This document shows, piece by piece, positions 14,248-45,852 of a stretch of 64,000 nucleotides of DNA. Made by a program: the position numbers and the translations under genes. Every line of letters begins with the position of its first letter. Position 1 is the first letter of the stretch. The notes beneath the pieces were generated by a model, which was given only the letters and a program-made list of their open reading frames with translations, made no database searches and had not been told where the DNA came from. Source of the DNA: Promethearchaeota archaeon (GTDB lineage Archaea; Asgardarchaeota; Lokiarchaeia; Sigyniarchaeales; SOKP01); assembly GCA_013375475.1 (NCBI GenBank), contig JABXKD010000001.1, positions 62,001-126,000 of the forward strand, in the 5' to 3' direction.

Positions 14248-14970
14248 TTAAGGATAAGTTAAGTATAATTCGTTAACTCGTCCTTTCTTCTCTAACCTTA
14301 TATAGTGTTTTTCTAACAGCTTATCAATATGATGTTTGACTGAGTTACGAGAAAGATTTAGAATGCGCGAAATTTCAGTAGAATTAATTCCAGGATTATT
14401 TTTAACAGTATTCAATACTTCTAAAGTTGTTTTTGATTTAGCAAATTGATTCTTAAATGTTTCAATCGCTTCTGCTGAAGTTGTTATAGGAAAATAAATA
14501 GTGTATTGCCCATAATTTTCCTTTTTTATAATGCTATGCTTTAATAACGTATCTAAATGCCATTGCAATTGACCTTTTTTTAAGTCACAGCTTCGAAGTA
14601 ATTCGTTGTGATGAATGCCAGGATTATTAAGGATTTGAGTTAGGAGGTTTAAGCGATTTTCGTTTTGAAATATATCTGCAAGAGATAGATAGGACCTCCC
14701 TTCTTTAATATAGCTCCGTCTAATAAAATAATTTCTATATTCTTTTACTGTGATAGCTGTAAGGGTTAAAACGAATGCAAGGGTTGGTACTAAAAGAATA
14801 AATAAAATCGAATTGAGAACTATTATATCAGGATCGAATACTGGTTTTTCATTCAATTTAATTAACAAGTACGATATAGCTGATAATAAAGCAAGAGAAA
14901 AAATAAAAAGGATAATTTTAGTTATAAAATCGCGTCTGTACTTTTCCGATTGTATAGTAATACTCGACAT
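14248..14970 (-). CDS. Membrane-anchored transcriptional regulator with two winged-helix domains
   Basis: Two N-terminal TM segments; NPGIHHNELLRSCDLKKGQLQWHLDTLLKHSII and NPGINSTEISRILNLSRNSVKHHIDKLLEKHYI. Confidence 0.8.
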   Translation of the reverse strand: MSSITIQSEKYRRDFITKIILFIFSLALLSAISYLLIKLNEKPVFDPDIIVLNSILFILLVPTLAFVLTLTAITVKEYRNYFIRRSYIKEGRSYLSLADIFQNENRLNLLTQILNNPGIHHNELLRSCDLKKGQLQWHLDTLLKHSIIKKENYGQYTIYFPITTSAEAIETFKNQFAKSKTTLEVLNTVKNNPGINSTEISRILNLSRNSVKHHIDKLLEKHYIRLEKKGRVNELYLTYP

Positions 14971-28496: not shown

Positions 28497-29312
28497 TTAT
28501 TGAAAAAATTCTATGAACTCCGAAGCAACCATCTGAGGGTCTTCCTTCTGCGCCGAATGTCCTAATTCATCCGGCCGGATAATCTTTAAATCCTCAACAT
28601 AGTTTTCCAATCCATCTAACACCACGGGCAGTATCGCGCCATCTTTCATCCCGTGGATCACCAGCGTAGGTATTTTTATAACACCCGTCCAATCTTCGTG
28701 GTCCATGTTAGCCCTGTAATAGTTAATCCCGCTAACAATGGCTCTCGGTTGAGACCAAGCTGCTAAGTATTTGTCTCCGTCTTCTATAAGGTCCGGACGT
28801 AATACTTGAAAATTGTTCGCTAATATAACCTTTTCGCTACCAGGTTGAATGAACCGGGAGATGTACGAACTCGCCTTTTTTTGAGCCTCGTTGTTTTTAA
28901 GCTTATCTTGGAATATCTTCATGTGAGGGGCGTTTATGATTGCTAACTTCTTAATTTTTTCAGGGTGTTTCTCAGCAATAAACCAAGAGAGCACACCACC
29001 CCAATCGTGACCCGCCAAATAAACGCTTTTAAAACCGAAGTGATCGATTAAACCACGAATATCCTCTATCAACAGCTCAATATGATAATTTTCTACTCCC
29101 TCTGGCTTATCAGATAAATTATACCCACGCATATCTGGGATTATTAATTGAAACCTGTCTTTTATCAAAGGAATAAGCTTCTTCCAGCCAAACCAAAAAT
29201 CTGGAAATCCGTGAAGCAAGACTAATGGTTCCCCGCTCCCAATAACTATAGTATGCAGCGAAATTCCATTAGTTTTAATATACTTCTCCTCTATATCTTC
29301 AATCCATTCCAT
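28497..29312 (-). CDS. Alpha/beta hydrolase (epoxide hydrolase/haloalkane dehalogenase-like)
   Basis: PLVLLHGFPDFWFGWKKLIP; AGHDWGGVLSW; GHSAQKEDP. Confidence 0.88.
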   Translation of the reverse strand: MEWIEDIEEKYIKTNGISLHTIVIGSGEPLVLLHGFPDFWFGWKKLIPLIKDRFQLIIPDMRGYNLSDKPEGVENYHIELLIEDIRGLIDHFGFKSVYLAGHDWGGVLSWFIAEKHPEKIKKLAIINAPHMKIFQDKLKNNEAQKKASSYISRFIQPGSEKVILANNFQVLRPDLIEDGDKYLAAWSQPRAIVSGINYYRANMDHEDWTGVIKIPTLVIHGMKDGAILPVVLDGLENYVEDLKIIRPDELGHSAQKEDPQMVASEFIEFFQ

Positions 29313-29336
29313 AATCCATTTTTCCTCAATTATTCA

Positions 29337-29425
29337 TAAATTGTCTATGGGAATTTAAGTCCCAAATCTAATATAAAATTACTGTTATCGTAACATTCTG
29401 TATTGATATGTAATGAAATATTATA
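29337..29425 (+). promoter_or_regulatory. Conserved upstream block, copy 1 (inverted repeat TGGGA-N7-TCCCA at 29348-29364)
   Basis: TAAATTGTCTATGGGAATTTAAGTCCCAAATCTAATATAAAATTAC..; aligns with 44512-44600, also upstream of an SCP2-Fd gene. Confidence 0.6.
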
Positions 29426-29491
29426 ATTATACTAAAGAATGATTAACTATATTATAAACTAATCATTAATTTTTATGAATTTATAAATTGA

Positions 29492-31180
29492 ATGGAGAAA
29501 AACAAAATGGTAGAAGCGAAAAAAATAGCAAATGTATTCGAAGATATCGATAGCGAATTACCCAAAGAACAATTGGGTAAATTGTTTTTAGAAGCAATAA
29601 TGGAAAAAACCGTTGATGTCTCGGATCCGATATATAAAATTAGCTTTCAGAGAACATATAAGGTAAATCTGGATATTTTGGGACATATAGGCTATCAAAT
29701 TTATGAACCGACTAATTATAGTTATAAATACGGTGAATTTATTGATGATCCGGATTTTACGATAACTTATAAAGATGTTGAATTTATTAGAGAAAGACTC
29801 CGGGGTGATAGAACCCGCACCGCCATAGGACTAAACTCAAAGGAAGTCCTCCAGGTATGTAGAAAAGAAGATCTATTCACGACATACACAAAAGCAAAGG
29901 TAGGTAATGCCCAATTATTTATAGCTAGAATCCCCTTCTTTGAGGAAATCGTCGAAAATTTAGGGGCGAGTCAACAGACCTTCCCACTCCGTGATGAGCC
30001 CGACACACCCATCACTCCCGTCAAAGAGGGTGAACTTGCGTCCCTTATGAAAGATATGTTAATTGAGACAGGGAATATGCCTGAAGAACTTTACCAAAAG
30101 AATTTCCAAGGGCAACCAATGAAAATCAATTGGGAAATTGATGACAACATCGCATATCAACATTTTGCTGAGAACGGGTATAAGTACGAATTTGGGAAAC
30201 ACATTGAGGATGCAGACGTAACTCTAAAGTTTCATAATCCATTGCATACCAAACGATTTCTCTCCAAGATTACTGGAAATTACGCCGCTAGAATTGTCGA
30301 TAAAAATCTTAATTTCTATTATAAAAATCCGGTTTTAAGCGTGAACTTTAAAGATAAGGAAGCCTCCGCATTATCTCTCTTGAGACTACCCTTTTACCGT
30401 GAATTAAATAGACCAATAGTTGAGCCAACGGTAGAGGACGAAGAAAAAGATACACGAGAGAATTATGGACATTATATCCCTGTTAATCTTCCCCTCGGTG
30501 ATTTTGAAAATGTGCCAGTCCCATACAAAGTATTTGAACACTTCATCAATAAAGCGAGTAATATAGTTCTCCGTACATGTGGTTGCCGTGAACGGTGGCA
30601 GTGCAAAAATCACTCCATCGATTTGGGCTGCATCTTTATGGGAGACGACACCAAAAACATGGTGCTTCCACCTGAGCAAGGTTACCATGCAACAAAAGAA
30701 CAAGCTCTTGAACATTTGACAAAAGCGATGGCCGAAGGATTGGTACCACTAATTGGGAGAAATGTTGCAGAAGCAGAAGGAGGCCATGGAGTAGAAGACA
30801 CGGGTAAATTTTTATCTGGATGCTTCTGCTGCGAATGTTGCTGTATTGGCGCTAAAGCCGCCAAATATGGTATTCGTACGGGGGCAAGCATGGCTGGGGA
30901 AAATACCGGTCTTCTGAAAGGTTGGACGATTACGGTTGATGAAGAGAAATGTACCGGCTGTGGGATATGTGTCGATGAGTGTCCCTTCAAATTGAGAATT
31001 CTTAAAGATGGAAAATCATCCGTAAATCCGAGAATCTGTGTAGGATGTGGAAGATGCTTGAAAGTATGCCCCGAAGAAGCTATTTCATTTGAAGTAGAGG
31101 ATCCAGAAGTAATCGATAAATTTATCGCGAAGATAGAGTCTATAGTCGATGTTACAGATAACTCTCTGAAAGCGGAATAA
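29492..31180 (+). CDS. Tandem SCP2-like domains plus 10-Cys module plus 2x[4Fe-4S] ferredoxin
   Basis: Two SCP2-like segments (IGYQIYEP..YKYGEFIDDPDFTITY; IAYQHFAE..YEFGKHIEDADVTLKF), CGCRERWQCKNHSIDLGCIFMG, CFCCECCC, two CxxCxxCxxxCP. Confidence 0.88.
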   Translation: MEKNKMVEAKKIANVFEDIDSELPKEQLGKLFLEAIMEKTVDVSDPIYKISFQRTYKVNLDILGHIGYQIYEPTNYSYKYGEFIDDPDFTITYKDVEFIRERLRGDRTRTAIGLNSKEVLQVCRKEDLFTTYTKAKVGNAQLFIARIPFFEEIVENLGASQQTFPLRDEPDTPITPVKEGELASLMKDMLIETGNMPEELYQKNFQGQPMKINWEIDDNIAYQHFAENGYKYEFGKHIEDADVTLKFHNPLHTKRFLSKITGNYAARIVDKNLNFYYKNPVLSVNFKDKEASALSLLRLPFYRELNRPIVEPTVEDEEKDTRENYGHYIPVNLPLGDFENVPVPYKVFEHFINKASNIVLRTCGCRERWQCKNHSIDLGCIFMGDDTKNMVLPPEQGYHATKEQALEHLTKAMAEGLVPLIGRNVAEAEGGHGVEDTGKFLSGCFCCECCCIGAKAAKYGIRTGASMAGENTGLLKGWTITVDEEKCTGCGICVDECPFKLRILKDGKSSVNPRICVGCGRCLKVCPEEAISFEVEDPEVIDKFIAKIESIVDVTDNSLKAE

Positions 31181-43981: not shown

Positions 43982-44407
43982 TTAATATTTCTTCTTAAAT
44001 TCGTCAATAACGTCTTCATAAAACTCTTGAAATAGTCTTACTTGTGTGAAATTTCCACTAATACCAAGCTTTCCAAGAGGAGCTACTATATTAGCGTCAG
44101 TCTCTCCAAAAAACAATCCCAAACCGATATCCTTGGAAGATGTGATTGTAAAGGATGGCGATTCAAGCTTTCCTTTGTCATATTCAACATTTCCTTTACT
44201 CACTTTTATCCAATATTCTTTTTCTAAATCAGAAAAAACTACTTGGCATGTATAATCACTTTCCTCAACGTCGGCTTTTAAATAATCAACTTCTTTGGAC
44301 ATCTGTTTAATTAATTCAAAAGATTTTAATACATCATCAGCCTCCGAAGCAGAAGCACCAGATTTTATCTTATTTTTCATTTCTTCAACTAACGATTTAT
44401 CAACCAT
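43982..44407 (-). CDS. Stand-alone SCP2-like domain protein
   Basis: 141 aa; KEYWIKVSKGNVEYDKGKLESPSFTITSSKDIGLGLFFGETD..LGKLGISGNF. Confidence 0.78.
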   Translation of the reverse strand: MVDKSLVEEMKNKIKSGASASEADDVLKSFELIKQMSKEVDYLKADVEESDYTCQVVFSDLEKEYWIKVSKGNVEYDKGKLESPSFTITSSKDIGLGLFFGETDANIVAPLGKLGISGNFTQVRLFQEFYEDVIDEFKKKY

Positions 44408-44511: not shown

Positions 44512-44600
44512 TAAATTGTCTATGGAAATTTATTTTCCAGTTCTAATAGAAAATTACGGGTATCGTGAGATTTTGTATTGTTATGTAGTGAAATATTACA
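44512..44600 (+). promoter_or_regulatory. Conserved upstream block, copy 2 (inverted repeat TGGAAA-N5-TTTCCA at 44523-44539)
   Basis: TAAATTGTCTATGGAAATTTATTTTCCAGTTCTAATAGAAAATTACGGGTATCGTG..GTATTGTTATGTAGTGAAATATTA; aligns with 29337-29425. Confidence 0.6.
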
Positions 44601-44685
44601 AAATATAAATGGACAGTGGTAACTTTTTTATAATGTGTTAAACAATATTAAGTTAAAAAGCTAATTAAGGGGTATCTATTAGATA

Positions 44686-45852
44686 TTGACTACTCAAAAT
44701 ACCGAGCTTGGAACTTATTTTATAAAGATGTTAGACGACATTGACGATTTACTAAAAGTTGATGAAGTCTTGAAAAAGGACTTGAAAGATCTTAAAATAT
44801 CCATTCAATGGTTTGTCAACGGAATCAAGGGATATCAAATATTTGACAACGGAAAATATACTCATAGGTTTGGAGAAGAAATAGAAAACGCTGATTTAAC
44901 AATTAAATTCGCAGATGAAGAGATAGCCTTGAGGTTTTTGAAAGGAAATTTAGAAAGGCACACGTATGTGTATTATAGGCGCAAATTTAAGTTATACTCA
45001 ATCGAAAAAGAGGAAAAGATCGAAAAAGATTCGAAGTCCGTAACAATACGCCATAGAAGACTTTTTTTAACAGCTTATTTTACCAAGAGTATCTTTTATC
45101 ATCCGTCATTTTTAACCAGATTTCCTCTTTTTAGAGAAATTGCTACAAGGCATTCAGAACCAGAAAATTCGTTCGGTTCTTACATTCCCATAAATGCATC
45201 CTTAGGTAAATTTGAAAATCAATTAATGCCTGAAAAAATGCTTGAACACTTTATTAAAAAAGCCAAACATTTTTACGTCCAAAACGCATGTGGGTGTAGA
45301 GTTTTTCACGATTGCCAAGATCACGATAAAAAATTTGCGTGTATGTACATAGGCGACGATGTCCCTACAATAAAACTACCTCCATCAATGGGGCACTCTA
45401 TTACTCAAGAAGAAGCGTTAACTTACGCAAAAGATGCTATAAAAAACGGATTAGTTCCTACTTTTGGTAGAGCTCCTGGTGAAACAAATGCGATAGGCGC
45501 GGTAGATACGGGACACATTATGTCTATATGTTATTGCTGCCCATGTTGCTGTCTTAACGGAAAGATCGCTAAATATGCTACTCGAGAAATTCAGATGTTC
45601 ACCAGAATGGAGGGTTTGACAGTTGAAGTTGACCCAAGTATATGTAATGGCTGTGGAACTTGCTTAGATGTCTGTGTTTTCGTCGGCAGAGATGTAATCA
45701 ACGGTAAGGCAGTCATTGACCAAGAACGGTGCCTAGGTTGTGGCCGTTGCGAACAAGTATGTCCTAACGACGCAATAACGATTAAGATTGACGATCCAAA
45801 AAGAGTTGTCGAACATATACAGAGACTAGAAGAAAGTGTAGATGTCTCTTAA
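44686..45852 (+). CDS. SCP2-like plus 10-Cys module plus 2x[4Fe-4S] ferredoxin
   Basis: IKGYQIFDNGKYTHRFGEEIENADLTIKF; CGCRVFHDCQDHDKKFACMYIG; CYCCPCCC; CNGCGTCLDVC, CLGCGRCEQVCP; TTG start. Confidence 0.9.
   Translation: MTTQNTELGTYFIKMLDDIDDLLKVDEVLKKDLKDLKISIQWFVNGIKGYQIFDNGKYTHRFGEEIENADLTIKFADEEIALRFLKGNLERHTYVYYRRKFKLYSIEKEEKIEKDSKSVTIRHRRLFLTAYFTKSIFYHPSFLTRFPLFREIATRHSEPENSFGSYIPINASLGKFENQLMPEKMLEHFIKKAKHFYVQNACGCRVFHDCQDHDKKFACMYIGDDVPTIKLPPSMGHSITQEEALTYAKDAIKNGLVPTFGRAPGETNAIGAVDTGHIMSICYCCPCCCLNGKIAKYATREIQMFTRMEGLTVEVDPSICNGCGTCLDVCVFVGRDVINGKAVIDQERCLGCGRCEQVCPNDAITIKIDDPKRVVEHIQRLEESVDVS

What the first reader, a model, noticed from the sequence alone, without database searches (positions are those of the whole stretch)
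29337..29425. Conserved ~89-bp block with a compensated inverted repeat upstream of two SCP2-Fd loci
Seen: 29337-29425 and 44512-44600 align over their whole length (TAAATTGTCTATGG.AATTTA.....A..TCTAATA.AAAATTAC.G.TATCGT.A.ATT.TGTATTG.TATGTA.TGAAATATTA). Both lie between divergent genes upstream of an SCP2-Fd ORF (29492, 44686). Each has a 17-nt inverted repeat at the same place, TGGGA-N7-TCCCA vs TGGAAA-N5-TTTCCA. The arm difference is matched on both sides, implying selection on the symmetry (operator or RNA hairpin).
Basis: seen in the sequence. Interest (0 to 1): 0.72.

Follow-up and report, generated by a model that had tools for sequence, protein, structure and literature searches.

The report
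Copied promoter segment, Lokiarchaeal ferredoxin cluster
A roughly 90-base piece of a well-conserved control region ahead of one iron-sulfur protein gene in a Lokiarchaeote has apparently been copied in front of a second, distantly related gene of the same family; the small hairpin that drew attention to it is not conserved in the one relative that has the region, so this looks like ordinary promoter duplication rather than a new kind of element.

Summary
29337-29425 and 44512-44600 match at 74 of 89 bases, with no similarity outside; the pair is far above chance and unique in the genome. Simulation gives a shared, once-compensated repeat in 2.9% of unconstrained pairs. An overlapping dyad, TAAATT-N9-AATTTA (29337-29357), is better kept.

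What is strongly conserved is the whole divergent intergenic region at locus 1: 79% identical to G019 over 176 bp, while four-fold synonymous sites are near saturation (41%, random 30%). It is the best-conserved of 18 upstream regions compared. At locus 2 only this 90-bp segment is present. The G019 orthologue of 44686 lacks it, the two genes are old paralogues, and G019 sides with copy 1 at 10 of 11 informative differences. So the segment was most likely copied to locus 2 after the split. Best reading: duplicated promoter/operator DNA, function at locus 2 unproven. Interest is modest. A family-wide 44-bp promoter-like element found in passing may deserve more attention.

The parts
29337..29425 (+). 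Block copy 1, inside a conserved divergent promoter region
   Evidence: homologous to G019:C65:39586-39674(-), 76% identity, blastn E 2.5e-16 against the two contigs; profile E 3.1e-19 (profile built with that sequence)
44512..44600 (+). Block copy 2, the derived copy
   Evidence: G019 agrees with copy 1 at 10 of 11 informative differences
29313..29506 (.). Whole divergent intergenic region of locus 1, conserved with G019 (79% over 176 bp)
29337..29357 (.). Dyad TAAATT-N9-AATTTA, candidate operator; 6/6 pairs in both copies, 5/6 in G019 (copy 2: 44512-44532)
29348..29364 (.). Inverted repeat TGGGA-N7-TCCCA named in the finding (copy 2: 44523-44539); broken in G019
29369..29382 (-). Left arm TAATATAAAATTAC of a wide dyad; read leftward it contains a TATA-like TTTTATATTA that could serve the hydrolase gene; TTTTCTATTA in copy 2 (44544-44557)
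   Evidence: (pairs kept), sequence; promoter role inferred
29410..29423 (+). Right arm GTAATGAAATATTA of the wide dyad, start of an A+T-rich TATA-like stretch for the rightward gene (copy 2: 44585-44598)
   Evidence: sequence; promoter role inferred
29438..29467 (.). Second dyad AATGATTA-N14-TAATCATT, conserved in G019 (one arm mismatch), absent at locus 2
44602..44631 (+). Element M (AAATGGACAGTGGTAACT core, 44607-44624) directly after block copy 2; three more copies on the contig, all upstream of genes of this cluster, none in 34 relatives
29507..31180 (+). SCP2-ferredoxin gene of locus 1 (long form, 4Fe-4S at the C-terminus); orthologue in G019 77% identical
44686..45852 (+). SCP2-ferredoxin gene of locus 2; orthologue in G019 69% identical, without the block
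28497..29312 (-). Divergent alpha/beta hydrolase gene at locus 1
43982..44407 (-). Divergent small SCP2-like gene at locus 2 (unrelated to the hydrolase)
   Evidence: Alkyl_sulf_C, 7e-6, just under the curated cut-off

Best explanation
The block is the upstream half of a functional divergent promoter region between a hydrolase gene and an SCP2-ferredoxin gene in a Lokiarchaeote. Shown: the whole region is under strong purifying selection, and about 90 bp of it also stands in front of a second, anciently diverged SCP2-ferredoxin gene. Inferred from the tree and polarity: the segment was copied from locus 1 to locus 2 (segmental duplication or gene conversion within the cluster) after this lineage split from G019. 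Inferred mechanism: it is double-stranded DNA control sequence, with binding sites for a dimeric regulator (best candidate the TAAATT-N9-AATTTA dyad) next to TATA-like core promoter elements, so that the second operon came under the same control as the first. Whether copy 2 still works is not shown.
For: Block pair unique and far above chance. The region upstream of 29507 is 79% identical to G019 over 176 bp and scores 99/79, against 32 for the next of 18 orthologous upstream regions and a control maximum of 27, while four-fold sites are 41% identical with random expectation 30%. Gene tree: 29507/G019_37791 and 44686/G019_34013 are separate, fully supported orthologue pairs, and the G019 orthologue of 44686 has no block (upstream score 9). 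G019 matches copy 1 at 10 of 11 informative differences. Similar distance to the start codon in both copies (81 and 85 bp) and same orientation to the SCP2-Fd gene, while the divergent gene differs. No Rfam family matches and no significant RNA fold on the sense strand (z -1.35 and -1.30).
Against: Copy 2's changes do not avoid positions conserved between copy 1 and G019 (10 of 68 against 5 of 21, Fisher p 0.33), so copy 2 may be decaying without function. Only one relative carries the region, so direction and timing of copying rest on three sequences. The TATA-like elements are weak in an A+T-rich region; upstream of genes on these contigs TATAAA is only mildly enriched 20-40 bp from the start codon, nearer than the block. 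No regulator has been tied to the sites.
Confidence: 0.62

Rival explanations
1. Copy 2 is a non-functional relic of a rearrangement or conversion: 90 bp of promoter DNA was carried along when the cluster was reshuffled and is now drifting.
For: Copy 2 changed about three times more than copy 1, with no preference for variable columns. Gene order differs strongly between G000 and G019. The segment boundary falls next to another shared piece, element M.
Against: Orientation and start-codon distance are kept, and both edges lie outside genes. Copy 2 keeps the 21-bp left dyad unchanged except one spacer base.
Confidence: 0.25
2. An operator or RNA hairpin selected for its symmetry TGGGA-N7-TCCCA / TGGAAA-N5-TTTCCA.
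For: Repeat present at the same place in both copies with one pair changed on both sides; chance of that in unconstrained pairs 2.9%.
Against: The orthologous block keeps 1 of 5 pairs. Shuffles reach the covariation score in 332/500. No unusual fold energy except z -2.1 for the antisense strand of copy 1 only.
Confidence: 0.07
3. A small mobile repeat (MITE-like).
For: Short non-coding duplicate with sharp edges.
Against: Only two copies in 3.9 Mb and none outside the two SCP2-Fd promoters in 65 family genomes except the G019 orthologue. No terminal inverted repeats or target duplications visible at the edges.
Confidence: 0.03

Closest known systems
Divergent archaeal promoter region with TBP/TFB (TATA/BRE) core elements and a palindromic operator for a dimeric winged-helix or TetR-type regulator
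   Same: Lies between divergent genes, A+T-rich TATA-like elements, short dyads, non-coding and conserved. Regulators of fitting type exist in the organism (wHTH gene 14248-14970; TetR-type gene on the same contig).
   Different: No regulator assigned; no transcription start mapped; the conserved region is long (about 176 bp).
Promoter duplication / promoter capture among paralogous operons
   Same: A promoter segment shared by two paralogues that are otherwise diverged, copied without the gene.
   Different: The copy is only the upstream 90 bp, joined to another shared element (M); activity untested.

Membership tests
Palindromic operator of a dimeric regulator | Dyad symmetry kept between orthologues | tested here: inconclusive
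   TGGGA-N7-TCCCA not kept in G019; TAAATT-N9-AATTTA kept 5/6 but without covariation
Palindromic operator of a dimeric regulator | Bound by a named regulator | not testable with these tools
   needs a binding assay
Palindromic operator of a dimeric regulator | Further sites at other regulated genes | tested here: not met
   no further sites above the reversed-pattern control in the genome at 3 mismatches, nor in 65 genomes with the profile
Cis-regulatory RNA hairpin / known RNA family | Match to a known family, or stable and covarying structure | tested here: not met
   Rfam none; fold z about -1.3 on the sense strand; no covariation beyond shuffles
Transposable repeat | Several dispersed copies with terminal repeats | tested here: not met
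   two copies only; no terminal inverted repeats
Archaeal core promoter | TATA/BRE at fixed distance from a mapped transcription start | tested here: inconclusive
   TATA-like words present but only weakly enriched by position on these contigs; starts unmapped

The most novel reading that the evidence does not exclude
In this Asgard gene cluster, promoters of paralogous genes are rebuilt from short interchangeable pieces (the 90-bp block, element M) that are copied between loci without the genes, so that regulation spreads by promoter shuffling.
Probability: 0.2. Interest if true: 0.5.

Novelty: new member of a known kind. Interest (0 to 1): 0.3.

Why it matters
Transcription control in Lokiarchaeia is hardly studied. 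The conserved region upstream of 29507 is a concrete, testable control region, and the copied segment predicts that two operons of a large SCP2-ferredoxin cluster respond to the same signal. The method used here (intergenic comparison against a near-saturated synonymous baseline) also led to a much wider 44-bp element that could define a regulon across a Lokiarchaeal family.

Tried and rejected
Weak blastn hits in other genomes looked promising (2.8e-4), but the best lies inside a leucine-rich-repeat coding sequence and the others inspected look like A+T-rich chance matches; the profile search found only three clear sites. RNA family and RNA fold explanations rejected. A wide nested dyad (29369-29382 with 29410-29423) keeps 91% of pairs but shows no covariation; it may simply be two opposed TATA-like elements. 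TATA position could not be settled. The bacterial promoter scan is uninformative here. Sequence-only comparison of the small SCP2 gene with the SCP2-Fd family was negative; the fold comparison settled it. Literature searches gave nothing on these genes or sites.

Full report
What was checked. The two blocks are real: 29337-29425 and 44512-44600 agree at 74 of 89 positions without gaps, and similarity ends at both edges. A search of the 3.9-Mb assembly (288 contigs, window = contig C111 62001-126000) finds only these two copies at E<=1e-3. In an all-against-all comparison of the intergenic regions of this contig and of its counterpart in a relative, the pair scores 96 bits, while reversed-sequence controls reach 67.7 at most. 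The rightward genes have a C-terminal 4Fe-4S ferredoxin part and an N-terminal domain whose model resembles an archaeal SCP2-like protein (3bn8; E 6.8e-4, probability 1.00; model pLDDT 79). The likely start at locus 1 is ATG 29507, not 29492.

Orthologous region. G019 has the orthologue of the locus-1 gene (77% identical) and of the divergent hydrolase. The intergenic region between them aligns to ours over 176 bp at 79%: block 76%, stretch between block and start codon 83%. This is remarkable because four-fold degenerate sites of 41 reciprocal-best gene pairs on these contigs are 41% identical, with 30% expected at random. Among 18 orthologous upstream regions this one scores 99 and 79 (from its two sides), the next 32, non-orthologous controls at most 27. 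So the entire divergent region, not the block in particular, is under strong purifying selection.

The symmetry claim. In G019 the repeat reads TGGGAACTTAAACTACT: one of five Watson-Crick pairs survives, plus one G-T. The pair called compensated is G-C in copy 1, A-T in copy 2 and G-T in G019, which two independent single changes explain. Simulated pairs with the same composition and 15 differences share an inverted repeat of at least 5 bp in 22% of cases, and in 2.9% with a compensated pair. Shuffling gives covariation as high as observed in 332 of 500 trials, though three sequences give this test little power. Fold energies are unremarkable on the sense strand (z about -1.3) and no Rfam family matches. 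Selection on that hairpin is therefore not supported. A dyad that overlaps it, TAAATT-N9-AATTTA (29337-29357), is complete in both copies and 5/6 in G019, and lies in the best-kept part of the block. It is the better operator candidate, though it shows no covariation. A further dyad, AATGATTA-N14-TAATCATT (29438-29467), is kept in G019 but is missing at locus 2.

Origin of copy 2. The two SCP2-Fd genes are old paralogues (38% identical); each has its own orthologue in G019 in a tree with full support for both pairs. The G019 orthologue of 44686 has no block, and its upstream region is unrelated to ours. Of 11 informative differences between the copies, G019 agrees with copy 1 at ten. The simplest history is that about 90 bp of the locus-1 promoter region was copied to locus 2 in this lineage after the split from G019. 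This is inferred from three sequences. Copy 2's changes are not concentrated at variable positions (p 0.33), so continued function at locus 2 is not shown.

A second shared piece. Immediately after block copy 2 lies element M (44602-44631), which recurs at three other places on the contig (C111 140330, 141385, 142388), upstream of two ferredoxin genes of the cluster and of a HypA-like gene, and in none of 34 relatives. The upstream region of 44686 is thus a mosaic of shared pieces.

Mechanism. Most likely the block is promoter/operator DNA for a dimeric regulator next to TATA-like core elements. Read leftward, 29369-29382 contains TTTTATATTA, a possible TATA box for the hydrolase; in copy 2, where the divergent gene is a different one and further away, it is TTTTCTATTA. 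This fits a segment that at locus 2 needs to act in one direction only, but TATA words are only weakly positioned on these contigs, so this remains inference. Family-wide profile search shows no other clear sites, so any regulon defined by this block has two members here.

Verdict. Real, non-random, explained well enough as a duplicated segment of a conserved divergent promoter region. The distinctive claim, selection on the inverted repeat, fails the one comparative test available.

Noticed in passing
G000 contig C111 3768-3811, 5359-5402, 5643-5686, 11625-11668 (outside the window; loci L224, L249, L096) and loci L221-L252: A 44-bp element, consensus TCATACKATTGATAATCTGTTTATAATGGGTAAATTTTTATTTT, occurs at 41 places in 31 of 81 genomes of the order (three genera of one family), with no hit of the reversed control. 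It mostly stands 45-110 bp upstream of a DUF2229/HGD-D-like gene (2-hydroxyglutaryl-CoA dehydratase related); others precede a second conserved gene or, on C111, a BadF/BcrA-type activator gene. It looks like a conserved promoter or operator of an acyl-CoA dehydratase regulon in Lokiarchaeia.
   Followed up: partly
window 44602-44631; C111 140323-140352, 141378-141403, 142381-142406: Element M, AAATGGACAGTGG followed by two bases and ACT, four copies, all in upstream regions of this cluster and absent from 34 relatives.
   Followed up: partly
window 29492-54058 and C111 132-144 kb: A large expansion of SCP2-like/ferredoxin genes: about 14 full-length and several shorter paralogues on one contig, in changed order in G019. 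They share invariant CxCR and CFCCPCCC-type cysteine motifs outside the Pfam ferredoxin matches; function unknown.
   Followed up: partly
window 29313-29506: This divergent intergenic region is by a wide margin the best-conserved upstream region between the two contigs compared.
   Followed up: yes
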